The position numbers were made by a program, and so were the translations under genes. The notes under the pieces are model-generated. The model saw only the letters and a program-made list of their open reading frames with translations. It was not told the origin of the DNA and made no database searches. Positions 31,128-62,207 of a stretch of DNA of 64,000 bases are shown one piece after another. The number at the start of each line of letters is the position of its first letter. Positions within the stretch are counted from its first letter, which is position 1. Source of the stretch: a virus; the IMG/VR virus record IMGVR_UViG_3300005264_000008, positions 18,229 through 82,228 of that record, one strand, 5' to 3'.

Positions 31128-31448
31128 ATGACAAAAAAAGAATTGGAAAATATCATTAGAGAAGTGATATATGAAAATATTAATAATATCATATTATCAC
31201 CTAAAGACAAATTTACATTTAAAGAAACGTTTAATGCATTTGATGAACCTGATTATTTATTTATTTATAAAGATGGAAAAAAACTCACTGAATTTTATTA
31301 TAATATGAGAGGATTCATTCCAAATTTCACATTAACAAATGGTAATGGTGTGCAAGCATCATTTGGCGAACTATCAAAATCAAAAAGTCTTAGGTTATTT
31401 AAAAATAATATAAAGCAAGGTTTTGTAAACTTACATAAATTTAATTAA
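31128..31448 (+). CDS. Tagged protein 1 (N-terminal tag plus small domain)
   Basis: 106 residues from the ATG at 31128; a TTG two codons earlier is less likely. The first 20 residues, MTKKELENIIREVIYENINN, follow the recurrent tag seen on many proteins here. The rest (KDKFTFKETFNAFDEPDYLF, then LYKDG-like strands) is a small unknown beta-rich domain. First gene of a run of tagged proteins that follows a terminator and a candidate late promoter. The tag may direct the protein into the capsid; see findings. Confidence 0.6.
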   Translation: MTKKELENIIREVIYENINNIILSPKDKFTFKETFNAFDEPDYLFIYKDGKKLTEFYYNMRGFIPNFTLTNGNGVQASFGELSKSKSLRLFKNNIKQGFVNLHKFN

Positions 31449-31476
31449 AAGGATAATTAAAATAAAAATAATACAT

Positions 31477-32583
31477 ATGTCAAAAGAATACACAAATATT
31501 AAAAAGATTATTACAAGTGGATTGGAAGTTGAAAAACAGTTTGCTGATAAAACTCCTACATTGAATTTATTATCTGAAATTATGTTTAATAACACAGGAT
31601 TAAATACAAATGAAATGGACACAATTAAACAAATCCAATTTATCAATACAGTAATAACGGAATTATATAATGGAGATATAATAAAACCATATCAATCACT
31701 CACATTAAAATCAACTATAAATTCAATATTACCCGAAAATATTCCTGTTGATTCTTTAAATGAATTACAAATTGAAAATTTATATAATAATTTAGTTGGT
31801 AAGGTTAAAACAATGGGGCTATTTGAGCTGTTTAAGGTATGGAATGATAAATATAAATATGTTACTACTGAAAGCAAAAACAATTCAAAATTATATAATA
31901 TTATAAGTGAAACAATTGATAAATATATAAACGAAGAAATAGAATCCGATGAATCAAAATTAAAAAAAACATATTACTTACAATATGGAATTGGTAGGTC
32001 GAAATATGTTGTGAATTATTATTCTGGTAAAAAAACACATCCAGATGGTAGTAAATTTTATGATATTTCTATTTTTAAAAATAAATCTAAATTAAAAGCA
32101 TTTATAGATAGTTTAAAAAAAGATGGATATATAACAGAATCGCATAATATAAACGAAGAATCGAAATTAAAAAAGGCATATAATGCATTTTTTGAAAAGG
32201 CAATGAAAATAGCTAAAATTAAATCACCTGATGATTTAGACGAAAAAGAACAAAAGAAATTCTTTAATGCTATATCGAAAAATTGGAAAAATGGAGTTGG
32301 TGCTGTTGACGGTTGGGAAGATACCTTTGAAAAGGCGTTGAATGAAAATTCACAATCAACGTCATCTAATATTGATAGTTTGTTAAAATATTATTATTTC
32401 AGACCAACTAATATTCCAAATGAATATGAAAATATAAATAGAAGCACTAAAATTATTCATATAAAAAATAAACTATTAATTACAGATTACACACCTAAAT
32501 ATAACAGATTTTTAAATAGCACTACAATAAAAGTAACAGATTTAGATAAATATGCGAAACGTAATAATTGGCAACATGAATAA
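31477..32583 (+). CDS. Multi-module protein with internal [IL]NE sites
   Basis: 368 residues. Module A (1-135) is helical. Residues 139-153 (LYNIISETIDKYINE) are a tag-like helix ending in INE. Module B (161-220) has YYLQYGIGRSKYVVNYYSGK and a hydrophobic core. INE at 225-227 starts module C, LKKAYNAFFEKAMKIAKIKS then an acid-basic helix pair with SKNWKNGVGAVDGW. LNE at 288-290 leads to module D. The [IL]NE sites between modules match the cleavage consensus of T4-type prohead proteases, so the product may be a polyprotein. The same frame stays open for 43 codons after the stop. Confidence 0.6.
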   Translation: MSKEYTNIKKIITSGLEVEKQFADKTPTLNLLSEIMFNNTGLNTNEMDTIKQIQFINTVITELYNGDIIKPYQSLTLKSTINSILPENIPVDSLNELQIENLYNNLVGKVKTMGLFELFKVWNDKYKYVTTESKNNSKLYNIISETIDKYINEEIESDESKLKKTYYLQYGIGRSKYVVNYYSGKKTHPDGSKFYDISIFKNKSKLKAFIDSLKKDGYITESHNINEESKLKKAYNAFFEKAMKIAKIKSPDDLDEKEQKKFFNAISKNWKNGVGAVDGWEDTFEKALNENSQSTSSNIDSLLKYYYFRPTNIPNEYENINRSTKIIHIKNKLLITDYTPKYNRFLNSTTIKVTDLDKYAKRNNWQHE

Positions 32584-32712
32584 AACAAAAATTCAGACGA
32601 TACTTTTTATGCTTTTCACTATGAAAAGAAAGACACAGTTTCAGTAGGTGATATTCAGCAAAAAGACGATGGTTCAGTTAGACGAATTGAACATATTATT
32701 AATAACGATTAA
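32584..32712 (+). other. In-frame coding remnant after a stop codon
   Basis: Directly after the TAA of the 31477 gene the same frame is open for 43 codons (FYAFHYEKKDTVSVGDIQQK, then VRRIEHIINND) to TAA at 32710-32712. It has no ATG of its own. It reads like the C-terminal end of a small domain and may be a lost extension of the upstream gene or the tail of a deleted neighbour. Confidence 0.4.
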
Positions 32713-32776
32713 TATCTTTTTGATGTTGAGTTATAACAGGTTAAAAAATAAAATAAAATAAAAAAAAATAAACAAA

Positions 32777-33649
32777 ATGGATAATAATTACTTAGTAGAA
32801 AGAAATGGTCACATCATACATTTGAATGATGAAGTGATTATCGAAAATAAAAATAAACGTTTTCTAGCAACATTCATACAAATGGATGATTCTGATAATG
32901 CAATATTAAAAATGAATGAAAGCGGAAAGCATATTAAAATAAACAGAGTACAAGCACAACAATATTTAAAACTAAATGAATCAAATCAAACTAAAAATGA
33001 TTTGACATTAGTTGATAGTAAAATGTTCTTCGGTGAAATAGCTAATGATATTATTAGTGAAGAAACATCATCATTAAAACCGATTGTTGATATAGATGAC
33101 ATATCAAAATATGGTATTAATATAACAGAAAATTTTAATAATTCTGGAAGACGTATTGCGGATATTAAAAAATTAGAATCTATATTGTATAATGCTAAAA
33201 TAATAGCAGAGAAATATAATTTGGACTTACATAGATTAATTACAGAAGGTAAAGATGTATTAGGTGTAGTCGGGTATGGTATCGAAACATCTTCGGAGTA
33301 TGAAATTGAAGAATATGCGAATGAAGATGGAATTGAAACCGATAGTGAATTTTGGTCAAAAATTAATAATGATATAAGTATAATTGAAAGAAATGTTCTT
33401 AAATATCTAAATAAAACTGATTCTGCACGTGATGAAGGTCACAATTCAAATGATGAATTAGTTGGAACATTATATATATCAAATAATAAGACATTAGAAA
33501 TGGTTGAAGATTCTATTGATGATGAACCACGAATGACATCAAAAGGTGATTTTCCACTGGATGATAGTGAGCTATACAAAGGTGTATCAGATGTTGGTGG
33601 CTTGATTGAAGTTTCACTTAACTTTTATAATTTAGAATTAGAAAAATAA
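32777..33649 (+). CDS. Hypothetical protein in the tagged-gene run
   Basis: 290 residues. An N-terminal SH3-like stretch (LVERNGHIIHLNDEVIIENK, LATFIQMDD) is followed by YLKLNESNQ at about residue 71, another LNE site. The remainder is acidic. No N-terminal tag, but its LNE and its position between tagged genes suggest it belongs with them. No family recognised. Confidence 0.55.
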   Translation: MDNNYLVERNGHIIHLNDEVIIENKNKRFLATFIQMDDSDNAILKMNESGKHIKINRVQAQQYLKLNESNQTKNDLTLVDSKMFFGEIANDIISEETSSLKPIVDIDDISKYGINITENFNNSGRRIADIKKLESILYNAKIIAEKYNLDLHRLITEGKDVLGVVGYGIETSSEYEIEEYANEDGIETDSEFWSKINNDISIIERNVLKYLNKTDSARDEGHNSNDELVGTLYISNNKTLEMVEDSIDDEPRMTSKGDFPLDDSELYKGVSDVGGLIEVSLNFYNLELEK

Positions 33650-33662
33650 TAAAATAAAATAA

Positions 33663-33734
33663 AATAAAATGAAAATAACAAAGAAACAATTAACAGAAAT
33701 CATAACTGAGTCAGTACAAAAATATTTGAATGAA
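33663..33734 (+). repeat. Direct repeat of tag-coding DNA, copy 1
   Basis: About 72 bases from the AATAAA leader through the tag codons recur at 33983-34054 with one difference (A to G in the TATTTGAATGAA region). Confidence 0.9.
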
Positions 33735-33980
33735 AATAAATATAAATCAAACAGTAAAGAATCAAATATTGTAGATATGTTTTATGATACATGGGCAAAA
33801 AATAAACAATTTCCACAACTAAAACAAAAATCAATTGACCCAATTGAAGTGGATTCTACAAATGGAATTATTAAATTGAAATTTACTATTGATGAGATTT
33901 TTAATAACAAAGGTAAAATAGAAAAAATAAAGCCAGAAAAGTACAATATTGATTTGAAATTTGAAATTACGAAAATATAA
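33669..33980 (+). CDS. Tagged protein 2
   Basis: 103 residues. Tag residues 1-23 read MKITKKQLTEIITESV, then QKYLNE, then the unrelated domain NKYKSNSKESNIVDMFYDTW and onwards. The DNA encoding the tag is nearly identical (one mismatch over about 72 bases including the leader) to the next gene, while the rest of the two proteins is unrelated. Function of the domain unknown. Confidence 0.65.
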   Translation: MKITKKQLTEIITESVQKYLNENKYKSNSKESNIVDMFYDTWAKNKQFPQLKQKSIDPIEVDSTNGIIKLKFTIDEIFNNKGKIEKIKPEKYNIDLKFEITKI

Positions 33981-33982
33981 AT

Positions 33983-34054
33983 AATAAAATGAAAATAACA
34001 AAGAAACAATTAACAGAAATCATAACTGAGTCAGTACAAAAGTATTTGAATGAA
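33983..34054 (+). repeat. Direct repeat of tag-coding DNA, copy 2
   Basis: Second copy of the 72-base element at 33663-33734. The shared tract ends at the LNE codons and the two genes diverge immediately afterwards. Confidence 0.9.
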
Positions 34055-34324
34055 GTTATGGGTTATAATATGAAAGCAAGTGATAAAAAATTCATATCAA
34101 GTTGGATTAATGGTAATCTAAAAGAAGGAGATAATAACCAGCGTTTATCAATAGAAAAAGGTAATATACTATCTGGTGTAATGTCTAATTTGGCAAGGAT
34201 TAAAGATATGGTACTATATTATGGTTATGCATATGGTAATGTATCACAAACATATATTAATTATATTAAAAAAACAGCAAAACAAAACGGACTTACGTTA
34301 AAATACTCTGAAAAAATTTATTAA
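33989..34324 (+). CDS. Tagged protein 3
   Basis: 111 residues. Tag MKITKKQLTEIITESV then QKYLNE, followed by VMGYNMKASDKKFISSW. The domain (about 85 residues) is probably helical, with KGNILSGVMSNLARIKDMVL. Unrelated to the domain of the preceding tagged protein despite the near-identical tag. Function unknown. Confidence 0.65.
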   Translation: MKITKKQLTEIITESVQKYLNEVMGYNMKASDKKFISSWINGNLKEGDNNQRLSIEKGNILSGVMSNLARIKDMVLYYGYAYGNVSQTYINYIKKTAKQNGLTLKYSEKIY

Positions 34325-34325
34325 A

Positions 34326-34712
34326 ATGAATATAGTACCATTTCCACATAATAAAACCAATGTATTAAATATACTTGAAGATATAGATGGTAATAAGTTA
34401 AATTTGGCAGATAAATTATCTAAGATAAAAACATTACCAACTTATGCAAAAGATTTAAATGATATTGAAATAAATAAATCATTAGATGAAATAGTTAATA
34501 TAATCAATCTTGCTGAAAAAGTAATTACTGATAATCGTAAAGAAGATTGGGATAATATGATTGTAAATAAAGATGTTAAGCAAATTGAAGAGACAAAGAA
34601 AGCATTCCAAAAAAATGTAATCGAATTTAAATTATTACAACAACGTTTATTTGGATTGTACGATGACTTGATGTTTAAACTTAATAGATATTTTAACTTT
34701 AATGATGAATAA
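34326..34712 (+). CDS. Untagged helical protein
   Basis: 128 residues, coiled-coil-like (MNIVPFPHNKTNVLNILEDI...). Follows the previous stop by one base. It lacks the tag, so may be a chaperone or partner for its neighbours; this is only positional inference. Confidence 0.55.
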   Translation: MNIVPFPHNKTNVLNILEDIDGNKLNLADKLSKIKTLPTYAKDLNDIEINKSLDEIVNIINLAEKVITDNRKEDWDNMIVNKDVKQIEETKKAFQKNVIEFKLLQQRLFGLYDDLMFKLNRYFNFNDE

Positions 34713-34732
34713 AACGAAAATAATAAAATAAC

Positions 34733-35581
34733 ATGAAACTATCTAAGAAAAAACTAACAACTTTAATTTTAAACGAAATTAAAAAGCAAACTGGAAAAAG
34801 TTCGGTTAATGAAAATATTGAACAATTGCAAATGCGTAAAGAAATTTCTGAAAATTATGATAAACTAAATAACGAAGCATTAGAAGTGAAACCGACTAAA
34901 AGAATAGGACGTGGTACATTTAATGTTGTAAGTTTAAGTGGCGGTGAAAGTGGTGAATACACAAAAGTAGCACAAAGATTTATTGATATGAATAACCATC
35001 TATCTAAAACAGAAACACAATTAAAAGATGTTAATAAAATTTTAGATAAAAAAATAATCGAATTTAAAAACGAACTAAAAAAATCGAGTGGATTGGATAT
35101 TGATAGTATTGAAGATAAAGTCAAAACTCTAAAATCACAAGTGAAAATAAAACAAAAAGAACTATTCGACTATTCAATAAATAATATATTTGGAAAACTT
35201 CGTGATGAAATAGACAGTACAATTGGAATAATAGTTGAAACAAAAAGCTTAACATCACAATTTAATGCACCTGCTAAAAAAATTGATTATATTAAAATAT
35301 TAAATGAATTAGTTAAAATAAACGCAGTTAGTCAAGATGTAATAGACAATATTACACAGCAATTTACAACTTTTGATGATACGAAGCGAAAATTGAAAGA
35401 AATCGTCCCTAATATCAATGAAAATAATTTACGAGAAGGGTTATTTAATAAAGTTAAAATGTTATTCGTAAACATATGGATTAAAATGAAAAATTCATTT
35501 ACTTCATTACTTGCATCTACACATTTAAAAAATAAGCAATTGAATAAATCTTTAAAACATATTAACAGACAAATAAACTAA
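34733..35581 (+). CDS. Tagged protein 4 (coiled-coil)
   Basis: 282 residues. N-terminal MKLSKKKLTTLILNEIKKQT is a variant of the tag, ending NENI. The middle is a long coiled coil (residues about 80-150: TQLKDVNKILDKKIIEFKNE and onwards) and the C-terminus is basic (THLKNKQLNKSLKHINRQIN). The first 20 residues and their codons closely match the next gene. Function unknown. Confidence 0.6.
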   Translation: MKLSKKKLTTLILNEIKKQTGKSSVNENIEQLQMRKEISENYDKLNNEALEVKPTKRIGRGTFNVVSLSGGESGEYTKVAQRFIDMNNHLSKTETQLKDVNKILDKKIIEFKNELKKSSGLDIDSIEDKVKTLKSQVKIKQKELFDYSINNIFGKLRDEIDSTIGIIVETKSLTSQFNAPAKKIDYIKILNELVKINAVSQDVIDNITQQFTTFDDTKRKLKEIVPNINENNLREGLFNKVKMLFVNIWIKMKNSFTSLLASTHLKNKQLNKSLKHINRQIN

Positions 35582-35586
35582 ATAAC

Positions 35587-36483
35587 ATGAAATTAACAAA
35601 GAAAACTTTAACAACTTTAATTTTAAAAGAAATTAAAAAGCAAACTAAAAAAAGTTTAGTAGTAACTGAATCAATTCGTGATAAAGTATTAATTGAAAAT
35701 ACAATTAGTAAAATTAAAAATAGTAAATTAACATATTTAAAAAAGAAAAAATATATTAATGCTATTACTGAGAACATTGGCAATGCAAAGAAAGTAAGTA
35801 AATATTTAACAGAAGGCATTGATAAAAAGTTGTTAACATTACAAAAATATCTTACAAAAGAATATGGTAAACAATATGAAGATGTGATTGAACATGAATA
35901 TGATAATACTTATTCATATAATGATGAAGAATATATTGTATTAACCGATAAAGAAGCTGATGAACTTGCAGTTGAGTACATGAAAGATTTATTAGATGAT
36001 ATTGGAATTGAAGGTACAAATCTAAATCAAGAAGACTATATCAATAATACAGACTGGTTTGATACTGCTATGCAAGAATCATATGAAAGTTATGTAAAAG
36101 AAATTGAAAATGAAAGTGATAATACATACGATAATAGATTAATTGCAGAATTAGTTGAAACTGGTTTGTTAGATGATGATGATTTTGAAACTGATGAAGA
36201 TGGTGATATTGATTATTATAATTTAAACGATGATGTTAATTTAGATGATAAAAGGGAAAAATATATTGAAGTGTTAATGGATAATTATTCAGATAGTGTC
36301 GAATGGTTTAAAAGTAATTTTGGTGATGACGAATTTAATGATATATTAAAAGATAAAGATTTAATAGATATTGATAGAGTTGTTGACGATATAATCCGCA
36401 TTGACGGTAGAGGTAGTGTAATATCATCATATGATGGAGCAGAAAACAAATTAAATAACTTTTATATATATCGAACGAGTTAA
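35587..36483 (+). CDS. Tagged protein 5 (acidic)
   Basis: 298 residues. Tag MKLTKKTLTTLILKEIKKQT, then a basic helix to about 75 (VSKYLTEGI, an LTE site), then a strongly acidic body with many Asp/Asn (LLDDDDFETDEDGDIDYYNL). The acidic part is of unknown function; DNA-mimic-like composition is noteworthy. The leader AAATAAACTAAATAACATG is repeated before the next tagged gene (36505). Confidence 0.6.
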   Translation: MKLTKKTLTTLILKEIKKQTKKSLVVTESIRDKVLIENTISKIKNSKLTYLKKKKYINAITENIGNAKKVSKYLTEGIDKKLLTLQKYLTKEYGKQYEDVIEHEYDNTYSYNDEEYIVLTDKEADELAVEYMKDLLDDIGIEGTNLNQEDYINNTDWFDTAMQESYESYVKEIENESDNTYDNRLIAELVETGLLDDDDFETDEDGDIDYYNLNDDVNLDDKREKYIEVLMDNYSDSVEWFKSNFGDDEFNDILKDKDLIDIDRVVDDIIRIDGRGSVISSYDGAENKLNNFYIYRTS

Positions 36484-36504
36484 CAAACAAATAAACTAAA
36501 TAAC

Positions 36505-36750
36505 ATGAAATTAACAAAAAAAGAATTAACAAAAATCATTTCAGAAGTAATAGACAATCATATCAATGAAGATTATGGATGGGATATTAAACGTGGTAAA
36601 GAACAGGATGCACTTGAAGATGCAATTGAAATGTTTGGTGAAAAATCAATATTACAACAATTAGTACAAGCAATGGGTACAAGTGCATTATCTGATAATC
36701 TTTCTTATATTTTTAGAATGAATGATTATGAATCACCATATTTAAAATAA
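36505..36750 (+). CDS. Tagged protein 6 (short)
   Basis: 81 residues. Tag MKLTKKELTKIISEVI then DNHINE, followed by DYGWDIKRGKEQDALEDAIE. Only about 58 residues of cargo. Unknown function. Confidence 0.6.
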   Translation: MKLTKKELTKIISEVIDNHINEDYGWDIKRGKEQDALEDAIEMFGEKSILQQLVQAMGTSALSDNLSYIFRMNDYESPYLK

Positions 36751-36755
36751 CATAA

Positions 36756-37490
36756 TTGAAATCTTCATTGACTAAAATACAAAAACATGTCAATATAATA
36801 TTTGATATTATATTGACACATCATGCACAGGGTCAACAATTACGACACGTTGATAAAGATAATATAATAATTACTAAACAAATTATATTGGATACATTGA
36901 AATGTTGTTTGGATGATATTATTTCTGATTTATTATTAGATAGAATTGATATTTCTGATTTTATTCGTGTCTTTAATAAAACGAATGATTTAAATATCAT
37001 AATAAAGATTGAAAATAATAATGATGATATAATGTTACGTATAATAACGGTAATAATCAAGCGAAATTTCAAAGATAAGGACATTAAACATGTTTATAAT
37101 GTCATGTGTAAGACTAATGATTACTCTCGTCTAAGAGAAGATTTAATGCTATTACAGCCGACCTTTAAACGTATAGATGAAACTTTTAAAAGAATACGAA
37201 ACCAAAAATTGCAAAGAATAAAAGGTAAACCGTGTGAAAAAGGCAAGCGTAAAGATTCTGAGACTGGTAAATGTATTAAGATGAGTTCGCAGGATAAAAG
37301 ACGTTATTCAATACAGAATAAGAAAAGTGCTTTGAAATCACGTGGTAAACGAGCATTAACATCAAAGAAAAGAAAGAAGAGTATGAGTTTACATAAAAAA
37401 CACATTGGAAACCCATATGAAACTGATGTAGATAAAAGTGAATTAGAATCAGATTATAAGTTTAAAAATTTTAAACCTTATTCTGATTAA
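36756..37490 (+). CDS. Basic protein, probable TTG start
   Basis: 244 residues if the TTG at 36756 is used; no early in-frame ATG exists. The N-terminal half is alpha-helical. The C-terminal 90 residues are very basic with two cysteines (CEKGKRKDSETGKC) and runs such as SRGKRALTSKKRKKSM, suggesting nucleic-acid binding. Ends with a terminator at 37492. Confidence 0.55.
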   Translation: MKSSLTKIQKHVNIIFDIILTHHAQGQQLRHVDKDNIIITKQIILDTLKCCLDDIISDLLLDRIDISDFIRVFNKTNDLNIIIKIENNNDDIMLRIITVIIKRNFKDKDIKHVYNVMCKTNDYSRLREDLMLLQPTFKRIDETFKRIRNQKLQRIKGKPCEKGKRKDSETGKCIKMSSQDKRRYSIQNKKSALKSRGKRALTSKKRKKSMSLHKKHIGNPYETDVDKSELESDYKFKNFKPYSD

Positions 37491-37491
37491 A

Positions 37492-37523
37492 TAAAAAAAT
37501 CCCACATAATGTGGGATTTTTTG
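37492..37523. terminator. Intrinsic terminator (bidirectional)
   Basis: AAAAAAATCCCACAT-AATG-TGGGATTTTTT, A and T tracts on both sides. It separates the tagged-gene run from reverse-strand genes. Confidence 0.85.
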
Positions 37524-37587
37524 TTTCGAATAATTATTTTTATATGTAAATTATTAGTAATTTATATATATATATATATTCATTTTT

Positions 37588-37755
37588 TTATTCTTTATGT
37601 ACATATACAATAGTTTCATTTCGAATTGAGTCAGTTATTTCGAATTGTTCATCTTCTGATAAATCTTCCCAACAAGTTGATTCATCATACCCCAAATCAA
37701 CTAAATCTATTGTAGCTTCATTTGTTGAGAGTGTTATACTAAATTGTATTTCCAT
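37588..37755 (-). CDS. Small acidic protein (55 residues)
   Basis: MEIQFSITLSTNEATIDLVD then CWEDLSEDEQFEITDSIRNE, ending YVHKE and TAA. Short but complete with an A/T-rich leader. It follows an (AT)n run (37561-37580). Similar in style to the tiny acidic ORF at 3325. Unknown function. Confidence 0.45.
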   Translation of the reverse strand: MEIQFSITLSTNEATIDLVDLGYDESTCWEDLSEDEQFEITDSIRNETIVYVHKE

Positions 37756-37870
37756 GTTATTTTATTTATGTGTTTATTTTTATTTTTACTTTTTAATATT
37801 GGTGTTCCATTCTTTTTTACAAATAACTGAATATTTTCCACATATTACAGATAATATATCTTAAAAAAAG

Positions 37871-39835
37871 TTAAATTCCAAACATTTTTTCAAAGAATGA
37901 GTCTTTCATGTTTATTTTAGTTACTTTCATTTTCGATATTTCTCCTTGATTAACTGCACTTGTAATCATTTGTTTATAATTAATAGTTTTATAAATATAA
38001 TAATCAATTGTATCACGAGCTAACATATTATATATATTAACACTATCATTTGTTTGACCAATTCTATGTATTCTATCAGATGCTTGGTCACGTTTACCAG
38101 GTGTCCACGGTTGTTCAATCATTAATAAATCACTTGAACTTGTTAGTGTTAATCCAGTTCCACCAGCTTCTATATTAAGAAATATTAAATTTACACTATC
38201 ATCATTTTGAAATGATTCTACATATTTATGTCGCTGTTCAATATCAATATCACCTACAACAATAGGAACATCATAATTAAATTTAGTTGAATAATATTTT
38301 TGTAACTTAACTAACGAATCCTTACGAATACCGAATACAACTAATTTTTTAGTTGGATTGTTTATGAAAAAATCATTTATCCAATTTCTAATACTATTAT
38401 ACTTTTGTTCTATTGTTATTGTTTGGTATTTTGTCATAAGCATTATACCAATTGCATTTGCAAGATTACTGTCAATAATATGATTTTCAATTAAAGTATG
38501 TATAATATTTTGTAATTTAGAAACACTGTTTTCTTTTGTTTTTTCTTCAGTGGCGGTTTCAATTATTTGTTGTAATAATATTTTTTCTGCATTATTATAT
38601 TCTTTATAATTATCTAATTCAGTTTCTATAATTATATGATTTTTAAGTGGTAATTCAGGTAATACATCTTTTTTTAATCGTCTCATATAACATATTTTCC
38701 GTAATTCAGTATTCAATTTTAATAATTTATTAGGATTTTCTTCAATTACATAATTATTCCAAAAATACCAAAACCCACCAAATTCATCTAATCGACCAAG
38801 CACTGTAAGTTGAGAAATTATTTCAGATGGTGTGCTAAGAATTGGTGTCCCACTTAATAGTAATCTCACATCAATATTTTTAACTAATTTTTTAATAATT
38901 TTAGTTCGTTTTGCTTTGTAATTTTTAATATAATGACTCTCATCAATTATTACTGATTGTATATTAAGTGCTTTTAGTTTATCAAACATTTTCTCAACTA
39001 TATCATAATTAATTATATACACATCGGCATCATAATTATTTTCATCTACTTTATACTTGACTTTATTTTTGGTACGTATTTTTATATTATTGCTATCTAA
39101 AATAGAAATTATTTTTTCTTCTTTACTCCATATGTCCCACTCTGTTTTCCAATTATATTTCAATCCATTTGGGCATATTACTAACACAGGATATGAATCC
39201 ATTTGAATGATACTTGCAATAGATTCGACTGTTTTACCAAGTCCCTGTTCATCACCGATTAAAATTCGTTTTTTATTACATATGTATTCAACACCAGCAA
39301 TTTGAAATGGTCGTAGTGTTCCGTTTAAACCATTTATTTTATATTCTGATTCTTGAGAACTTGATTTTTTGAATGACTCATCATATTCAAGAAGTAACAT
39401 ATCAATATATGTTGTGACGGATTCATCAACATCAAATATATCAAATAATTTAGATTTTATAATTGGAATTGTGATGTTATTAATATTGATTGTCCAATGT
39501 TTGTGAGTTGGATTAAATTTTCTAGTTGGAACTTCTTTTATCAGATTGACTAATGCTTGGTCATATGGAAATGATGCTACTAATTCATTTTTAGCATTCA
39601 TATATAATTTATTATTTGTAATATTTTTTTCTTTCGTAGAAACTAAATTCAATGATTTGAATTTAATGTTGATTAAATCTTGTTTATGTCGTCTTAATAT
39701 ATGATATAATTGAATTCTATGTGTTAATAATAACAGATTATATTTATTATAATATGATAATATATCATTAATAATAGGCTGTTCATATTTAGAATTGAAG
39801 TCTATATATTTTATTTCATTGATTATAGTTTGCAT
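37871..39835 (-). CDS. SNF2-family helicase/translocase (SMARCAL1/HARP-like)
   Basis: 654 residues. Motif I IGDEQGLGKT (193-202), motif II VIIDESHYIKN (about 297), motif III LLSGTPI, and C-terminal motifs V-VI (GGTGLTLTSSSDLLMIEQPW, SDRIHRIGQTNDSV). A HARP-like region precedes the core (about 78-117, SFPYDQALVNLIKEVPTRKF then KHWTI). Such enzymes remodel forks or anneal strands; this could take the role of T4 UvsW. It ends FFEKMFGI, a possible clamp-binding tail. Confidence 0.85.
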   Translation of the reverse strand: MQTIINEIKYIDFNSKYEQPIINDILSYYNKYNLLLLTHRIQLYHILRRHKQDLINIKFKSLNLVSTKEKNITNNKLYMNAKNELVASFPYDQALVNLIKEVPTRKFNPTHKHWTININNITIPIIKSKLFDIFDVDESVTTYIDMLLLEYDESFKKSSSQESEYKINGLNGTLRPFQIAGVEYICNKKRILIGDEQGLGKTVESIASIIQMDSYPVLVICPNGLKYNWKTEWDIWSKEEKIISILDSNNIKIRTKNKVKYKVDENNYDADVYIINYDIVEKMFDKLKALNIQSVIIDESHYIKNYKAKRTKIIKKLVKNIDVRLLLSGTPILSTPSEIISQLTVLGRLDEFGGFWYFWNNYVIEENPNKLLKLNTELRKICYMRRLKKDVLPELPLKNHIIIETELDNYKEYNNAEKILLQQIIETATEEKTKENSVSKLQNIIHTLIENHIIDSNLANAIGIMLMTKYQTITIEQKYNSIRNWINDFFINNPTKKLVVFGIRKDSLVKLQKYYSTKFNYDVPIVVGDIDIEQRHKYVESFQNDDSVNLIFLNIEAGGTGLTLTSSSDLLMIEQPWTPGKRDQASDRIHRIGQTNDSVNIYNMLARDTIDYYIYKTINYKQMITSAVNQGEISKMKVTKINMKDSFFEKMFGI

Positions 39836-55006: not shown

Positions 55007-55020
55007 AATTTATTTATTAA

Positions 55021-56433
55021 TTATTTTTCAAAAATTGAAAGTTGTTTTGATGACATATTTTTTAAATAATCTACACTTTCATCATAAGTCAGATTTGGAT
55101 TTTCAAAATAAGCATCTTCCAATGCTCGCAAATATGTTCCGATTTTCGCACCTTTTACATTAAATAATGACATTACATCATTACCATTTAAAGGTAATTT
55201 AATATGTTGTTCGTTTGATGTAACATCGCTTAAATTCTCCAAACGAAGTTTAACTGCTTTAACTTGATTTGGCATACATGAATCATCACTATGTGACATG
55301 TTGTCTGCATGAATTAAATTTAACATTTTATCCATATCAATAATCTTGTTACGGAACTTTCTAAGTGATTTATCCGTAATACCATTTCCATCATCACCAG
55401 CAATTTTTAAGCCCATGTGATTTTTGATTAAATTAGTTATATTATTGATTTCCACAGTTGAATATTTCAATCGTTTTAAAATAGTTGTTGCAATATTCAC
55501 TCCTACGTTCTCATGATTGATAAAATGAATAACACCATTATCATTAGTAGCAGTATCATATTTACCAATATCATGTAATAAACTAGATAATCTAGTAATT
55601 AAGTCATTTGATGTTAATGATACTACTGACAGTGTGTGTCGATACGCATCATCTTTATGATGTTTATTTTGTTCTAATCCAACTAAGTTTAACAGTTCAG
55701 GAATGAAATGTTTCAATAATCCTGTTACACGTAATAATTCAATTGCTTTAACTGGATTAGGACTTATCATCATCTTATTGAATTCCGATTGGATTCGTTC
55801 CATCGAAATAATTGATAGTCTGTAACTATTTTCAGTAATAGCATCTACCATATAATCAGGAAGTTCCCAATTGTACTTAACAGTGAAACGAATTGCACGT
55901 AGCATTCGTAAAGGGTCATCATTGAAAATAGTATCTGGTTCTAGTGATGTACGAATAATCCCCTTTTTTATGTCATCTACACCATGCCCTGTTAAATCTA
56001 ATACGTTACCATTAGATACGTTTTTTAACAGCGAATTTACCGTAAAATCACGTCTAAGAACGTCATCTTTAAGTGACCCATATGATGTGATTGGGTTTCT
56101 GCTGTTTGATTCATATTCTTCCTTGCGTGTCATGACACATTCAATGTCAATTTCACTTAAATCGAATCCATCTACAATGACCCCTTTTAATTTGAACATT
56201 GCTGTGCCGAATGTTTCAAAAACAACAGGTGTAAAATCTACATGATTTTTACACATGAAGTTAGTAAATTCTATGCCTCCATTTGGCATATTAATTACCA
56301 AATCGATGTCTTTGGGTGTTAAACCCATGATTTCATCACGGACAAACCCACCTGCAATAAACACTTTGTTTTCAAACTTGGTGTTTTCAATACACCTTTT
56401 TAAAAAATTTATTGCTCTCTTTTCGTTTGTCAT
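55021..56433 (-). CDS. cca: CCA-adding tRNA nucleotidyltransferase with HD domain
   Basis: 470 residues. Head: FIAGGFVRDEIMGLTPKDID (G28-G29, D42, D44), then DVLRRDFTVNSLL (motif B-like) and DDPLRMLRAIRFTVKYN (motif C). SMERIQSEFNKMM follows, and an HD phosphohydrolase part begins LLHDIGKYDT with INHENVG. It adds CCA to tRNAs. The tRNA genes in this window do not encode CCA, so it probably matures them. It has its own host-type promoter, suggesting early expression. Confidence 0.93.
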   Translation of the reverse strand: MTNEKRAINFLKRCIENTKFENKVFIAGGFVRDEIMGLTPKDIDLVINMPNGGIEFTNFMCKNHVDFTPVVFETFGTAMFKLKGVIVDGFDLSEIDIECVMTRKEEYESNSRNPITSYGSLKDDVLRRDFTVNSLLKNVSNGNVLDLTGHGVDDIKKGIIRTSLEPDTIFNDDPLRMLRAIRFTVKYNWELPDYMVDAITENSYRLSIISMERIQSEFNKMMISPNPVKAIELLRVTGLLKHFIPELLNLVGLEQNKHHKDDAYRHTLSVVSLTSNDLITRLSSLLHDIGKYDTATNDNGVIHFINHENVGVNIATTILKRLKYSTVEINNITNLIKNHMGLKIAGDDGNGITDKSLRKFRNKIIDMDKMLNLIHADNMSHSDDSCMPNQVKAVKLRLENLSDVTSNEQHIKLPLNGNDVMSLFNVKGAKIGTYLRALEDAYFENPNLTYDESVDYLKNMSSKQLSIFEK

Positions 56434-56459
56434 GGTAATTATTTTAAAGATTTATAGTG

Positions 56460-56467
56460 CAAATATA
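56460..56467 (-). promoter_or_regulatory. Bacteroidetes-type -7 box before cca
   Basis: On the reverse strand TATATTTGCACTATAAATC, about 27 bases upstream of the ATG at 56433. Same core as at 27091 and 50616. Confidence 0.65.
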
Positions 56468-56541
56468 ATTTATATAACTTTAATATAAAAATAAAAAATG
56501 TTAAAAAATGTTAAATAACTTTAAAATTAATATTTTGACAA

Positions 56542-56972
56542 CTACTCCGCAATCGATTTTAATAATTCGTGAATGATTTCGATATTGGAATTTCTCCACG
56601 TACACGAGCCATAAGACACTGATTTTTCTGTATAATGATGTGAATTAGCTTTTAAATGTCGCTCACATTCTTTTGCAGTCAAAAACGTGTTTTTATAAAC
56701 TTTTTTTTCTTTATAAGGTAGTCTCACAAAATCGAATTCGGTTTCTAAATAATCACAAAAATCAATATGACTAAAATCATTAAAGTCAATTGTATTGATG
56801 CTATCTTGTTTGTTTTCATAACAAAAACATCTTCAGTTAAAAATCGCCCATCACCACATGACGGTTCTAATATCTTCTTTTGTAGGATGTTGTCATTATT
56901 AAACACAACATCATCAAGTATTTTAATAACAATGTAGTTTGGAGTGAAAATTTGACCCAATTTATTTTTCAT
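56542..56972 (-). pseudogene. Truncated, frameshifted DNA methyltransferase (HsdM/IIG-like)
   Basis: MKNKLGQIFTPNYIVIKILD then KKILEPSCGDGRFL is the N-terminal SAM-binding part of type I or IIG N6-adenine methyltransferases. Near 56819-56823 (A5; T5 on the coding strand) adding one T carries the frame into CYENKQDSINTIDFNDFSHI and onwards to SIAE at 56542. The NPPF/Y catalytic motif and the specificity domain are absent, so even with the shift repaired it is a fragment of about 143 residues. Probably non-functional. Confidence 0.55.
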
Positions 56973-57409
56973 TACGATAATAAAGTGTTACATAATTTAC
57001 CAACTATTTTTTTATCATACTGTCCATTATATTTTTGTGTTAGATATACCATTATATCTTTTATATTTCGTTTATTATTATAACCATTTTTTTGAATTAT
57101 TGTTTTCACAATATCTTCCAACTCAACATCTGACATTTTAGTTGGTAAAAATTGTTTAATTATTTTAATTTCATACATCTCACTATTATATAACTCTGGT
57201 CGGTTTTGTTGTTTATATAACAACGATTGGTCAATTCTCTTTTGACAGTATCTATCCAATATATCAATTATTTCATTGTCACTTAACACATTTAATTTTT
57301 CTTTTTGTGTTGTTTCTACTAAGTTGATTAAATTTTTCAAAACCAATCGTTTTGCAACATTTTTTGATTTCAATGCCTTGACAGATTCAGACTTCAATTT
57401 TGTTAACAT
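56972..57409 (-). CDS. YqeY/GatB-like protein
   Basis: 145 residues. MLTKLKSESVKALKSKNVAK with LKNLINLVETTQKEKLNVLS and the later YEIKIIKQFLPTKMSDVELE match the YqeY family (GatB C-terminal domain-like), which binds tRNA-related substrates. Its ATG overlaps the next gene by one base. With cca and the tRNAs it forms a translation-related group. Leader TTTATTTATATAAAATA is a candidate phage promoter. Confidence 0.8.
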   Translation of the reverse strand: MLTKLKSESVKALKSKNVAKRLVLKNLINLVETTQKEKLNVLSDNEIIDILDRYCQKRIDQSLLYKQQNRPELYNSEMYEIKIIKQFLPTKMSDVELEDIVKTIIQKNGYNNKRNIKDIMVYLTQKYNGQYDKKIVGKLCNTLLS

Positions 57410-57446
57410 AATTTTATATTTTATATAAATAAAGTAATTTTATTTC

Positions 57447-57462
57447 ACTATTTATATAAAAT
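57447..57462 (+). promoter_or_regulatory. Candidate phage promoter (CACTATTTATATAAAA)
   Basis: Same element as before 31128; 9 bases before the ATG at 57471. A reverse-direction copy lies at about 57416-57432 for yqeY. Confidence 0.5.
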
Positions 57463-57470
57463 ACAATAAT

Positions 57471-58337
57471 ATGATAGTAAATAAATATAAATCACGTATA
57501 TTAAACATGATTATAATTACCATGATTATAATCATTAATAACATAATATACATCAAATATTTTTATGATTTCAATATAGTTTTATGTAAAACAGATGTAT
57601 TTGTAGTTATTTTTTTAATATTATCATTTATAACAATTATATTATTATTTCATAACATAATACACCGTTCAAAAGTAGAATATAAAGATAAAATGAATAA
57701 AATGATATTATACAATATAAAAAGTATAGTACACGATTTCAAATCACCGATTAAAACACTAAATGGATTGATATTTTTACTCTCGAATAAATTAAAAAAT
57801 AATAATGACAACTCCATACAAGAATATTCAAAAAAAATAACAACGTTACTAGAATATTTCAACGAAATTATTAATAGTAATTTACGAGTATTTTTAAATC
57901 ATTCACGAATGGAAAATACTAAAATAGAATTATATGATGTCATTAATATGACAACAAATTTAATTCATTACAATTTAAAAGATATTGATATAATATTGGA
58001 TGATTCCTTAAAAGATAAATTCATATATACCGATACATATATATTAATACGTATTATACAAAATATATTAACTAATATACAACATCATAACAAAACACTT
58101 GAATATATCAAAATATATTATAAAAATAGCAATGGACATAATATTATATTTGAAAATAATTGTCCTGAAGCACGAAATATCAAAAGACACATTAGACGTA
58201 ATTACAAAAAATCAATATATGGACTTGGATTAACAATTATACGTGAATTATTATATAAAATAAATGGAAAAATAACATTTTCCACAATAAAAAACATTAA
58301 AAATCAAACAATAATAAATTTTAAAAATTTGAAATAA
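57471..58337 (+). CDS. Membrane histidine-kinase-like protein
   Basis: 288 residues. Two transmembrane segments (about 11-31 and 42-62) with a short loop. Residues 86-95 IVHDFKSPIK match the phospho-acceptor H-box, with His88. An N-box-like IRIIQNILTNIQHH is at about 196-209. The ATP-lid end YGLGLTIIRELLYKINGKI is the G2 box near 251-269. The G1 DxGxG is replaced by FENNCPE, so catalytic competence is uncertain. No response regulator is nearby. Located between phage-promoter elements and the tail sheath gene, so it is probably late. Phage-encoded sensor kinases are rare. Confidence 0.7.
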   Translation: MIVNKYKSRILNMIIITMIIIINNIIYIKYFYDFNIVLCKTDVFVVIFLILSFITIILLFHNIIHRSKVEYKDKMNKMILYNIKSIVHDFKSPIKTLNGLIFLLSNKLKNNNDNSIQEYSKKITTLLEYFNEIINSNLRVFLNHSRMENTKIELYDVINMTTNLIHYNLKDIDIILDDSLKDKFIYTDTYILIRIIQNILTNIQHHNKTLEYIKIYYKNSNGHNIIFENNCPEARNIKRHIRRNYKKSIYGLGLTIIRELLYKINGKITFSTIKNIKNQTIINFKNLK

Positions 58338-58380
58338 TTTTTTTATATTTATATAAAAGAAACAATAAAAAATATAAACA

Positions 58381-60753
58381 ATGATAACAGAAATGATAAG
58401 TCCAAATGTATACCAAACAGAACAAGATATTTCATATCTACCACAAACATCACAAGCAGGTGAATTAGTTATTATCGGAACAACTGAAATGGGTGAGGCA
58501 TTCATTCCAACTGATATTACTAGTGTAACAGAATTTAATACAAAATACGGATATAGTAATAAATATAATTATGTACCACAAACGGTATATAATTTCCTAA
58601 AATATGGAAATATTACAACTGTAGTTCGTTTAATGAGTGAAAATGGTTATACACATGATAGTACTATTGCAATAGCATTTGAAGTTGTAGAAGATGCTAC
58701 ACAAAGTATAATTGCATTATTACACAGAGCAGAAGGTTCAACTAAAATAATTGGAGACGATGCTCAGATAAATATTACAATAACACATATATCAGGACAC
58801 GAATATACTGCAAATATTGAAGTTACTGATGGTGCATATGCAAGTTTAACTGAATCATATACTTTCTCATTAGTTTCAACTGCATCAAATTACATATCAA
58901 AAGTATTTTCAACATCACCACAAACAAGTAAATTGGTATATTTATATAATATATTTGATGAGAAAATTAGTGAATTAATAACGTATATTACATCTGAAGG
59001 ATATACATATACATTAGAAGATACATCATTTGATTTAGATTTTGATAGTGTTCCTTACACACGTGCTTCTACACCGTGGATTATATCACAATTTACCGAT
59101 TCAAATGATTCATATAATAAGTTATTCAAATTTAATACATTTTCACAAGGAAATAACATGAATAAAAAAGTGAAAATTTCACTTGAAAATATTAAATACG
59201 CATCAGAAGTACCAAATAGTGATTATGGAACATTTACAGTATTAGTACGAGAATTTGATGATACTGATGTACGTCCTGTTGTACTTGAACGCTTTAATAA
59301 TGTAACATTAAATCCAACTGATACTAATTATATTGCACGTGTTATTGGTGATAGTTATAAAACTATAGTTGGAAATAAAATCATCAAACATGGTAATTAT
59401 GCTAATTTAAGTAATTATATTTATGTTGAAATCAATGCCGATGTTAATAATGGAACAACATCACCCGAATTAGTTCCATTTGGATTTGAGAAATTACAAG
59501 TGCCAGTAATTGACAGTACAATCGAGAATTCATTTCCAATTACTAAATTAATAACATTACAAGATATTTCAGGAGTATATAATACTAAAGTATATCATGG
59601 TTATAATTTCGATTCAGCGGATAATATCCAATATTTAATGCAAATAGCCACATCAAATGGAACAAGTTTAGTTAATAATATCAATACATTATTTAATTTA
59701 GATAATTGTATTATACATAATGATGCATCACAAGATGCAGGTGCAAATGTTGGTGATAGTTCTTTATTGTCAGCACGTAAATTTTCAATACCATTCCAAA
59801 ATGGATTTGATGGTGATGACCCTGCTAAATATAAAGCAATTGATGGTGAAATTACAAGTTCAAATGTATTTGGATTCGATTGTGGTGACGCAAATGCAAC
59901 TGGAACAGCATTATACAAAAAAGCATTTTTAATACTATCAAATGTCGATGTATATGATTTTAATATTTTAACAACACCAGGTATAAATTATAGATTACAT
60001 CCAGCTGTAATTACAAGTGGTATTAACTTATGTGAACTTAGAGGAGACGTTATATATTTAACTGACATTTCTGCGAAAGACGATTCAGTTGCAACAGCAA
60101 CAAATGCAACTTCAACATTAGATACCAATTTTGCTTCTACTTATTTTCCGTGGGGAAAACTATTTGACAGTGATACTAATTCATATCGATGGATGCCAAC
60201 TTCAGTATTTGTTCCACAAGCAATTGCATTTAATGATAAAATAGGTTATCAATGGAATGCACCAGCAGGACTAAATCGTGGTGTACTTGATAATGTTTTA
60301 GATGTAGCAATCGAATTAGATATTAATGAACGTGATGAATTATACGAAGCAAACATTAATCCAATTGCAACATTTAAAGAAGGAATCACAGTGTGGGGAC
60401 AAAAAACATTACAACAAAAATCAAGTGCACTTGATAGAGTTAATGTTAGAAGATTATTAATTAACTTAAAGAAATACACTAATTCAAAAGTTAAATATAG
60501 TGTATTTGAAGGAAATACACAAGTTACCCGAAATAAAATAATCAATATATTAAGTCCTTATTTGGATAGAGTTCAACAAAAAGGTGGATTATATGCGTAT
60601 AAAATTATAATGGATGAAACAAATAATACGGCAGATGTAATTGATAGGAATATGCTTAAAGGAAAAATTGCAATTAAACCTACTAAAACCGCTGAAATAA
60701 TTGACATTACATGGTCAATAGTTGGGTCTGATTTTGATTTAGAAACTATATAA
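58381..60753 (+). CDS. Tail sheath protein (gp18-like)
   Basis: 790 residues. N-terminal SPNVYQTEQDISYLPQTSQA with VVRLM, mid-protein YNFLKYGNITTVVRLM, and the C-terminal core AIAFNDKIGYQWNAPAGLNR, LYEANINPIATFKEGITVWG and VNVRRLLINLKKY are those of contractile sheath proteins. Size is close to T4 gp18 (659) with extra insertions. It drives injection by contracting around the tube. Confidence 0.93.
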   Translation: MITEMISPNVYQTEQDISYLPQTSQAGELVIIGTTEMGEAFIPTDITSVTEFNTKYGYSNKYNYVPQTVYNFLKYGNITTVVRLMSENGYTHDSTIAIAFEVVEDATQSIIALLHRAEGSTKIIGDDAQINITITHISGHEYTANIEVTDGAYASLTESYTFSLVSTASNYISKVFSTSPQTSKLVYLYNIFDEKISELITYITSEGYTYTLEDTSFDLDFDSVPYTRASTPWIISQFTDSNDSYNKLFKFNTFSQGNNMNKKVKISLENIKYASEVPNSDYGTFTVLVREFDDTDVRPVVLERFNNVTLNPTDTNYIARVIGDSYKTIVGNKIIKHGNYANLSNYIYVEINADVNNGTTSPELVPFGFEKLQVPVIDSTIENSFPITKLITLQDISGVYNTKVYHGYNFDSADNIQYLMQIATSNGTSLVNNINTLFNLDNCIIHNDASQDAGANVGDSSLLSARKFSIPFQNGFDGDDPAKYKAIDGEITSSNVFGFDCGDANATGTALYKKAFLILSNVDVYDFNILTTPGINYRLHPAVITSGINLCELRGDVIYLTDISAKDDSVATATNATSTLDTNFASTYFPWGKLFDSDTNSYRWMPTSVFVPQAIAFNDKIGYQWNAPAGLNRGVLDNVLDVAIELDINERDELYEANINPIATFKEGITVWGQKTLQQKSSALDRVNVRRLLINLKKYTNSKVKYSVFEGNTQVTRNKIINILSPYLDRVQQKGGLYAYKIIMDETNNTADVIDRNMLKGKIAIKPTKTAEIIDITWSIVGSDFDLETI

Positions 60754-60759
60754 TATAAT

Positions 60760-60792
60760 AAAAAGACTATGATATTTATATTGTGGTCTTTT
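60760..60792 (+). terminator. Probable terminator after tail sheath
   Basis: AAAAAGACTATGA-TATTTATA-TTGTGGTCTTTTC: stem including G-U pairs with a short T run. Confidence 0.55.
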
Positions 60793-60821
60793 CTTTCAAA
60801 TTGAAAAGCAAACAAAATAAC

Positions 60822-61121
60822 ATGACACTCATTGAACAAATCTCATCTAATATAATACACGAAATTAAACAATTATCATTTCTAAATAAAAAAACATATG
60901 AACTTGTTAAATCGAAATTAACAACAAGCGAATGGAATACAAATATATTAGATGGTAAACATATAACAGATAGTACTGCTAAATATTTAAAAAATCGAGT
61001 TGATGAAATATTATCTGAAATTGGTATGTCAGTTGTGTTAGGTAAAAATTATAATACTAAATTGACAGAATTATTTGAAACAATTTCAATTTATTATGGA
61101 TATATAACAAAATACAAATAA
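60822..61121 (+). CDS. Small hypothetical helical protein
   Basis: 99 residues from the ATG at 60822; the frame reaches upstream into the terminator and is not used. MTLIEQISSNIIHEIKQLSF... loosely resembles the tag (short helix with I-x-x-I-I-x-E) but lacks the Lys-rich start. Ends where a 93-base repeat begins. Unknown function. Confidence 0.5.
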   Translation: MTLIEQISSNIIHEIKQLSFLNKKTYELVKSKLTTSEWNTNILDGKHITDSTAKYLKNRVDEILSEIGMSVVLGKNYNTKLTELFETISIYYGYITKYK

Positions 61122-61202
61122 AATAATTAAATGTGATTATTTTATTAAAATAATCAATAATCAATAATCAATAATTATGAAACTAACAAAAAAACAATTA
61201 AC
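61110..61202 (+). repeat. 93-base direct repeat with tag start, copy 1
   Basis: Contains the end of one gene, the ATAATCAATAATCAATAATC leader and the first codons of the tag (to MKLTKKQLT). An exact copy lies 764 bases later. Confidence 0.92.
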
Positions 61203-61731
61203 AGAAATAATCAATGAATCAATTCAAAAATATTTGAATGAATCTAGTGCAGGTATCACAATCAAAGAATATATCAATAAATTAGAAAAAGAAATACAAA
61301 AAATATTTCCTAAATCGCTTGCATCTGTTCGTTTACACAAGGGATTAATGCCATCTATAGTTATTGTATTTGGGATTGGTAAGGATAAATCCGAATGGCA
61401 AAATGGTATTCTTCGTAATGACCCTGTTGTACATAAATTAAGTATATTTTTTGAAGATATATCTGAAAATGGTTCTTTGACAGAAACTGATTTACTTCCA
61501 CAAGTATTATCATTTGACGTATCAATTGGTGGACGTATTACAATTAAAGCGACAGATGGATTTTCAGCATATTCATCAATGAAAACAGGTATTAGAAAGA
61601 AAAAAGGAAATCCAGACCAAATATTTAAACATATAGTTAATTATTTTAAAAAATTAAAGACTATTTGGGTAAACAATCTTGATAAATTAGATGATGAGCA
61701 TTATAAATTATATGGTAAAAAATATAAATAA
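61177..61731 (+). CDS. Tagged protein 8
   Basis: 184 residues. Tag MKLTKKQLTEIINESI then QKYLNE, followed by SSAGITIKEYINKLEKEIQK. The body (about 160 residues) has alternating strands and helices (HKLSIFFEDI, SFDVSIGGRITIKATDG) and a basic C-terminus. Function unknown. Confidence 0.65.
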   Translation: MKLTKKQLTEIINESIQKYLNESSAGITIKEYINKLEKEIQKIFPKSLASVRLHKGLMPSIVIVFGIGKDKSEWQNGILRNDPVVHKLSIFFEDISENGSLTETDLLPQVLSFDVSIGGRITIKATDGFSAYSSMKTGIRKKKGNPDQIFKHIVNYFKKLKTIWVNNLDKLDDEHYKLYGKKYK

Positions 61732-61739
61732 TCAATAAC

Positions 61740-61931
61740 ATGAAGACAGAAAAAATATGTATTAATCATGATTGCCCATTAAGGAAAATATGTAAAACAT
61801 ACAACAAAGAAAAATATACAAATATATTAAATATTCCGAGAGAAAAATTTCAATATAGTATCGAAAAATCACCAAATACAAATAAAATAATTAAATGTGA
61901 TTATTTTATTAAAATAATCAATAATCAATAA
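61740..61931 (+). CDS. Small cysteine-containing protein (63 residues)
   Basis: MKTEKICINHDCPLRKICKT..., with Cys spacing CxxxxC and C at 7, 12, 18, and a later Cys (IKCDYF): perhaps a small zinc- or Fe-S-binding protein. Its last 16 codons lie inside the 93-base repeat, copy 2. Confidence 0.5.
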   Translation: MKTEKICINHDCPLRKICKTYNKEKYTNILNIPREKFQYSIEKSPNTNKIIKCDYFIKIINNQ

Positions 61932-61966
61932 TCAATAATTATGAAACTAACAAAAAAACAATTAAC
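61874..61966 (+). repeat. 93-base direct repeat with tag start, copy 2
   Basis: Identical to 61110-61202. Here it spans the end of the 61740 gene and the start of the next tagged gene. Confidence 0.92.
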
Positions 61967-62207
61967 TGGGATAATTAGTGAAACAATTACTAAATATCTA
62001 AATGAATCACAAATAACAAACTATGGATTTGTATTTAGTCGCAAGAATGGATTTAAAGTAATAGCAATATGGGATAAAAAACACAATGAATCAATTTCTT
62101 TATTTGCACAAAATATACAAAATACAACTAAATTCACAGATGCTGATTATATGACATTTACATCATTAACCAAAATGAATGAATACTTATTGAAATATGC
62201 ATATTAA
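61941..62207 (+). CDS. Tagged protein 9
   Basis: 88 residues. Tag MKLTKKQLTGIISETI then TKYLNE, followed by SQITNYGFVFSRKNGFKVIA. The cargo is a small beta-rich domain of about 60 residues with FSRKNGFKVIAIW. Function unknown. After it come a perfect hairpin and the tRNA cluster. Confidence 0.65.
   Translation: MKLTKKQLTGIISETITKYLNESQITNYGFVFSRKNGFKVIAIWDKKHNESISLFAQNIQNTTKFTDADYMTFTSLTKMNEYLLKYAY

What the first reader, a model, noticed from the sequence alone, without database searches (positions are those of the whole stretch)
31128..62207. A shared N-terminal tag on about ten unrelated proteins, resembling a capsid-targeting signal
Seen: proteins at 31128, 33669, 33989, 34733, 35587, 36505, 43352 (minus), 61177 and 61941 all begin with a helix of the type MK[IL]TKK-x-LT-x-II-x-E; weaker versions open the proteins at 2915, 43953 (minus) and 44770 (minus), and one sits inside the 31477 protein. 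In five cases the tag ends LNE or INE at residues 20-24, after which sequences are unrelated. Known: T4 internal proteins and Alt carry short N-terminal capsid-targeting sequences removed by prohead protease gp21, which cuts after [LI]xE. Inferred: this phage uses one interchangeable tag to load many different cargo proteins into its capsid for injection, including a metallopeptidase and a P-loop kinase.
Basis: partly seen in the sequence, partly recalled or inferred. Interest (0 to 1): 0.88.

Follow-up and report, generated by a model that had tools for sequence, protein, structure and literature searches.

The report
Shared phage protein-packing address tag
Many otherwise unrelated proteins of this virus of bacteria, and of a broad set of uncultured relatives, begin with the same 22-residue 'address label' that most likely loads them into the virus head and is then cut off, so a phage's probable injected cargo could be read straight from its genome.

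Summary
The shared N-terminal tag is real. Eight proteins of this 82-kb T4-like phage record carry it clearly: six in the window and two just outside it. Three more copies are weaker but above chance. The other weak cases, including the P-loop kinase and the metallopeptidase, are not established as tagged.

The tag is a widespread, apparently undescribed phage module with consensus MKITKxQLxxIIKEELxxVLxE. I collected 169 non-redundant tagged proteins from relatives; their bodies fall into 150 unrelated clusters, with up to about 30 tags per genome. Conservation stops at residue 22. There an [LI]xE motif, the known cut site of the T4 prohead protease gp21, is strongly enriched (87 of 134 proteins against 17 expected).

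In relatives the same motif sits where T4 gp23 is cut, tagged genes flank the gp21 gene, and the core-region gene after gp21 opens with a tag-like helix. One body carries either this tag or a second tag resembling T4's capsid-targeting sequence. Some proteins repeat the tag internally.

Packaging, cleavage and injection are inferred. This record lacks capsid and protease genes.

The parts
33669..33734 (+). Tag MKITKKQLTEIITESVQKYLNE (residues 1-22) opening a 103-aa protein
   Evidence: (E 5e-9)
33989..34054 (+). Tag, same 22 residues as 33669 (one synonymous codon different), opening a 111-aa protein with an unrelated body
   Evidence: (E 4e-9)
36505..36570 (+). Tag MKLTKKELTKIISEVIDNHINE opening an 81-aa protein
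   Evidence: (E 1e-6)
61177..61242 (+). Tag MKLTKKQLTEIINESIQKYLNE opening a 184-aa protein; the body matches phrog_21515 (residues 30-163 to profile 4-130), i.e. the match begins just after the tag
   Evidence: (E 1.5e-8)
61941..62006 (+). Tag MKLTKKQLTGIISETITKYLNE opening an 88-aa protein
   Evidence: E 2.4e-7
61110..61202 (+). 67-bp leader plus the first 26 bp of the 61177 gene, identical to 61874-61966: duplicated leader+tag cassette
61874..61966 (+). Second copy of the leader+tag cassette, before and into 61941
43859..43924 (-). Tag MKITKQELTNIIETVVRKKINV (possible later cut site HLDE) opening the 190-aa protein 43352-43924
   Evidence: E 4e-3
31128..31187 (+). Shortened tag MTKKELENIIREVIYENINN opening a protein; no LxE at the end
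   Evidence: E 4e-5, window-built profile
31897..31935 (+). Internal tag copy NIISETIDKYINE at residue 141 of the 31477-32583 protein, which also has INE and LNE motifs further on (possible polyprotein)
   Evidence: (E 1.7e-4)
2915..2974 (+). Weak tag-like start MTKKELNQIVTQIVNVKVQQ
   Evidence: E 6e-4
34733..34798 (+). Divergent tag-like start MKLSKKKLTTLILNEIKKQTGK, shared with 35587
   Evidence: E 0.13
35587..35652 (+). Divergent tag-like start MKLTKKTLTTLILKEIKKQTKK
   Evidence: E 0.21
44706..44768 (-). Possible tag remnant MKGNLYQIISETIDKYTSNNI on the HELGH metallopeptidase-like protein 43953-44768; borderline
   Evidence: E 0.03
31108..31118 (+). TATTTATATAA box just before a tagged gene; the same box precedes the tail-sheath gene (58346-58356)
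   Evidence: 7 found, 1.4 expected

Best explanation
The tag is a capsid-targeting sequence, equivalent in job to the short propeptides of T4 internal proteins but with its own sequence. It most likely forms an amphipathic helix from about residue 4 to residue 22 that docks its protein onto the prohead core while the head assembles. The T4-type prohead protease (gp21) then cuts after [LI]xE at residues 20-22, frees the body inside the head, and the body is ejected with the DNA at the next infection. New cargo is acquired by copying the leader plus tag in front of a new reading frame; in-frame fusions of neighbouring tagged genes give multi-tag polyproteins that the same protease could separate. 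Shown here: the tag, its boundary, the cut-site-like motif, body diversity, phage restriction, gene neighbourhood, duplication and fusion. Inferred: docking, cutting, packaging and injection.
For: Of 169 non-redundant tagged proteins, conservation falls to background after residue 22-23. [LIVMF]xE ends at residue 22 in 58 of 134 proteins not selected for it (3.6 expected), and at 20-24 in 87 against 17 (maximum 30 in 2000 shuffles), with P3 mostly L and P2 free. gp21 cuts after L/I-x-E (PMC9026906). Capsid proteins of tagged relatives align LL[KR]E^A with the T4 cut FLTE^A.

gp21 is present in 15 of 25 tagged relatives and Gp23 in 11; all seven records of 150 kb or more have both. Tagged genes abut gp21 in three of the head modules examined (L093, L094, L096). 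The gene after gp21 opens with a helix the tag profile recognises (E 1.7e-4, 5e-4 and 1.8e-3 among 1329 N-termini).

169 bodies form 150 clusters. One body is found with tag A or with a T4-CTS-like tag B. Tag-B genes beside tag-A genes include ADP-ribosyltransferase-like proteins, as T4 Alt is (below Pfam's cut-off). In a 2-Mb bacterial bin all 27 tags lie on the one contig carrying gp21, terminase and sheath. Tagged genes share a box with the sheath gene.
Against: No virion proteome or N-terminal sequencing exists for any tagged phage I could find; the nearest isolates (immuto, Mel-JY01) have at most weak tags. The record holding the window lacks gp21 and Gp23, so the link is through relatives. 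About a third of tags have no LxE at 20-24. Bodies are acidic on average, unlike the basic T4 internal proteins. T4 itself has no match to the tag. A conserved helix with L20 and E22 could in principle be kept for helix reasons alone. The swap between tags rests on one body.
Confidence: 0.75

Rival explanations
1. The tag is an uncut docking helix: it brings proteins to the prohead core or another head part but stays attached in the virion, and the LxE is part of the helix's binding face.
For: Strong conservation of helix residues 1-16 and amphipathic spacing; a third of tags lack LxE; some copies sit at the C-terminus or inside proteins.
Against: The L-x-E triplet at residues 20-22 with a free middle position and an abrupt end of conservation is the pattern of a cut site, and it matches the capsid protein's pro-region end. 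The protease is present in every large tagged record.
Confidence: 0.12
2. The tag works in the infected cell, not in the virion: it anchors many small host-takeover proteins to one partner (RNA polymerase, membrane or DNA).
For: Many tagged proteins are small and fast-evolving and lie in arrays away from the head genes, as early accessory genes do. T4 itself lacks the tag.
Against: It does not explain LxE, the position next to gp21, the tag-like start of the gene after gp21, or exchange with a T4-CTS-like tag. Two tagged genes and the sheath gene share one promoter-like box.
Confidence: 0.1
3. The similarity is a by-product of DNA: a leader plus gene-start cassette that copies itself by recombination, with no protein-level job.
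For: 61177 and 61941 share 67 bp of leader plus 26 bp of coding sequence; 33669 and 33989 differ by one synonymous codon.
Against: Other copies differ by synonymous and conservative changes while keeping the peptide pattern. The same pattern holds across 169 proteins from many phages.
Confidence: 0.03

Closest known systems
T4 capsid-targeting sequence (propeptides of IPI, IPII, IPIII and Alt, cut by gp21)
   Same: Short N-terminal peptide, one peptide on unrelated proteins, ends in an [LI]xE gp21 site, used beside a gp21-type protease and a Gp23 capsid; T4-related phages carry other internal proteins with CTS-like starts (PMC9026906).
   Different: Sequence unrelated to MKTYQEFIAE, the start of T4 IPII and IPIII, and no tag match anywhere in T4; 22 residues instead of about 10; roughly 5-30 tagged proteins per genome instead of four; long arrays and multi-tag fusions; a related start is also seen on the core-region gene.
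Propeptides of phiKZ-like giant phages (Salmonella SPN3US gp45, gp47, gp50, gp53, gp54)
   Same: N-terminal propeptides of head and ejection proteins removed by a prohead protease at x-x-E; gp53 and gp54 share 15 identical N-terminal residues (PMC5694885).
   Different: Those propeptides are mostly over 100 residues and the protease motif is AxE/SxE; no interchangeable tag on many unrelated bodies is described.
P1 DarB N-terminal packaging signal
   Same: The first 30 residues suffice to send a reporter into the P1 capsid (PMC9024508).
   Different: No consensus is found among Dar protein N-termini there, so it is not a repeated tag.
Flavobacterium phage immuto and Microcystis phage Mel-JY01
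   Same: Closest isolates by terminase (48-49% identity); same head-gene order with gp21 and Gp23; immuto gp084 is a homologue of a two-tag protein.
   Different: They have almost no copies of this tag; immuto instead repeats another start, NF[DN]L[KR][KS]FL[VT]ENKLT...LKE.

Membership tests
T4-type capsid-targeting sequence (CTS) | Short peptide at the extreme N-terminus | tested here: met
   Residues 1-22, conservation ends at 22-23
T4-type capsid-targeting sequence (CTS) | Same peptide on otherwise unrelated proteins | tested here: met
   169 bodies in 150 clusters, 136 singletons
T4-type capsid-targeting sequence (CTS) | Ends in the prohead-protease motif [LI]xE | tested here: met
   87 of 134 against 17 expected; motif defined in PMC9026906
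T4-type capsid-targeting sequence (CTS) | Genome encodes a gp21-type protease and Gp23 capsid | tested here: inconclusive
   Not in the 82-kb record, which is probably incomplete; present in all seven tagged relatives of 150 kb or more
T4-type capsid-targeting sequence (CTS) | Sequence related to MKTYQEFIAE | tested here: not met
   No match of the tag profile in T4. So it is filed as a CTS-like system, not as a homologue of the T4 CTS
T4-type capsid-targeting sequence (CTS) | Directs the protein into the head and is removed there | not testable with these tools
   Needs virion proteomics or a reporter fusion
Uncut host-takeover docking motif | Tag kept in the mature protein, genes expressed early | not testable with these tools
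   Only indirect evidence: a promoter-like box shared with the sheath gene

The most novel reading that the evidence does not exclude
A large set of uncultured T4-like phages uses one address-and-release code to load roughly 5-30 different proteins per virion, partly as multi-tag polyproteins cut apart inside the head. The tag would let anyone list a phage's injected proteins from sequence alone.
Probability: 0.55. Interest if true: 0.87.

Novelty: new variant of a known kind. Interest (0 to 1): 0.76.

Why it matters
Proteins that phages inject with their DNA disarm host defences or take over the cell, but they are small, fast-evolving and unrecognisable by homology: of 148 tagged proteins one matched Pfam, and only 15 PHROG families were matched, each by a single protein. 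A readable address tag would turn these unknowns into a defined list of candidate injected effectors in many uncultured phages, and could serve as a portable loading signal for engineered heads.

Tried and rejected
AlphaFold models of 61177 and 43953 had mean pLDDT of 43 and 41 without an alignment and were not used, although the 61177 model does put a helix at 5-22. tblastn of the 22-residue tag and of the conserved gene-after-gp21 protein against isolated phages found nothing. Bodies of 61177, 43953 and 44770 have no relative among isolated phages, and those of 61177 and 43953 none in IMG/VR. No solved structure matches the tag. A strict scan for tag B gave one contig only, so its breadth is unknown. 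A search of open papers for tag sequences found none. LxE upstream of internal tags is only mildly enriched (8 of 21 against 3.5, p 0.013), so excision on both sides is not claimed. A purely DNA-level repeat was rejected.

Full report
What was checked. The window is part of an 82,228-base virus record (G000; window = 18229-82228), AT-rich (26% GC) and T4-like: terminase, contractile sheath and DnaB-type helicase were recognised. Its terminase is closest to Flavobacterium phage immuto and Microcystis phage Mel-JY01 (48-49% identity).

The observation. Five window proteins (33669, 33989, 36505, 61177, 61941) have unmistakable tags ending LNE or INE at residues 20-22. 43352(-) is a sixth. Two more lie in the 18 kb before the window: L001 3342-3749(-) and an internal start in L001 12460-13554(-), the latter on DUF285 repeats. 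A profile built from these eight also finds 31128 (4e-5), an internal copy in the 31477 protein (1.7e-4) and 2915 (6e-4). 34733, 35587 and 43953 are borderline and 44770 is not found. The kinase-like protein (Zeta_toxin/AAA_33, 4.8e-7) is therefore not shown to be tagged.

A widespread module. A degenerate DNA pattern for the tag found 58 contigs in IMG/VR but only 2 in 85,000 bacterial and archaeal genomes. In the 2-Mb bin of one of the latter, all 27 tags lie on a single contig that also carries gp21, terminase and sheath. In the other bin 19 of 20 tags lie on the 101-kb contig, whose length and tag positions match virus record G007. Tagged relatives carry from 1 to 31 copies per record, often in long same-strand arrays.

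Anatomy. From the fetched loci I collected 169 non-redundant tagged proteins. Consensus is MKITKxQLxxIIKEELxxVLxE. Residues 1-14 are partly imposed by the search expression, but residues 15-22 and the drop after 22-23 are not. In 134 proteins that do not satisfy the LxE-containing scan pattern, [LIVMF]xE ends at residue 22 in 58 (3.6 expected), at 21 in 23, and at 20-24 in 87 (17 expected, maximum 30 in 2000 shuffles). P3 is mostly L and P2 is free. The scan pattern only favoured E at 23-25, so the peak at 21-22 is not a direct selection effect. The bodies after the tag fall into 150 clusters, 136 of them singletons.

Link to the head. gp21 of T4 cuts after L/I-x-E (PMC9026906). Aligned with T4 gp23, whose cut FLTE^A is known, the capsid proteins of tagged relatives show LL[KR]E^A at the same place (the cut in relatives is a prediction). 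The gp21 family occurs in 15 of 25 tagged relatives and Gp23 in 11; all seven records of at least 150 kb have both. Records without them may be fragments: G007 for instance breaks off close to a partial terminase match. In L093, L094 and L096 a tagged gene directly flanks gp21. In most head modules examined the gene after gp21 begins with a helix like MKKSELKNIIKECVKEVIFEEG, which the tag profile recognises in L086, L087 and L088 (1.7e-4, 5e-4, 1.8e-3 among 1329 N-termini). In the phages nearest this one by terminase, the genes just before and after gp21 start MQLDKLREFIRELIKKELAE and MKLKDIIKEELGG.

Exchange and fusion. One body (VGDVxLxGRFKNKR...) has this tag in L049 and a tag-like start in L099, but a different start, MKKLLTEWRKYLNE, in L012. 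That second tag resembles T4's MKTYQEFIAE, and other genes with it encode proteins resembling ADP-ribosyltransferases (2.8e-4 and 6.4e-4, below Pfam's cut-off), the activity of T4 Alt. L035 8000-8581 is tag, domain, tag, domain; L056 and L103 carry the second domain alone with its own tag; immuto gp084 has the same plan with weak tags. In 3840 reading frames 21 internal tags were found and 17 are followed by LxE; upstream LxE is only mildly enriched.

Spread within the genome. 61177 and 61941 share 67 identical bases of leader and 26 of coding sequence; other copies have diverged with synonymous and conservative changes. TATTTATATAA occurs 7 times in the window (1.4 expected) and lies 3-24 bases before a tagged gene, the sheath gene and others.

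Judgement. The tag most likely loads proteins into the prohead and is cut off by the gp21-type protease (0.75). Injection of the freed bodies follows by analogy with T4 and is less certain (about 0.6). It works like a T4 CTS but is not a sequence homologue of it, so it is a new variant of a known kind. No paper in the open library contains the tag sequences I searched for; subscription literature was not searchable.

Noticed in passing
5167-5943, 5946-6953, 23254-24477 (+): Three different DNA methyltransferase-like proteins all end in the same C-terminal peptide NNLFNF, which looks like a sliding-clamp-binding tail.
   Followed up: no
18171-21911 (+): Ribonucleotide reductase-like protein that appears to be interrupted by an intein (CVEENSHVMTLNNG ... 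GIVTHNC).
   Followed up: no
31108, 46329, 57431, 57449, 58346, 29470; also L001 near 3766: TATTTATATAA box, 7 in the window against 1.4 expected, 6 of 7 within 40 bases before a gene start; a candidate late promoter.
   Followed up: partly
36756-37490 (+) and L001 7189-7488 (+): Two very basic proteins share a CxKGxK...KCIKMS motif followed by Lys/Arg-rich tails; possible DNA-binding head proteins.
   Followed up: no
L005 17631, 18632, 25241 (Flavobacterium phage immuto): immuto repeats a different N-terminal peptide, NF[DN]L[KR][KS]FL[VT]ENKLT...LKE, on neighbouring proteins, with a looser version just after gp21: possibly its own form of such a tag.
   Followed up: partly
L105 record LR756508.1 (484-kb uncultured phage): Fourteen weak tag-like matches, so a divergent form may exist in megaphages.
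   Followed up: no
12014-13714 (+) and 49900-50223 (+): GroEL-like and GroES-like genes in the phage, far apart from each other.
   Followed up: no
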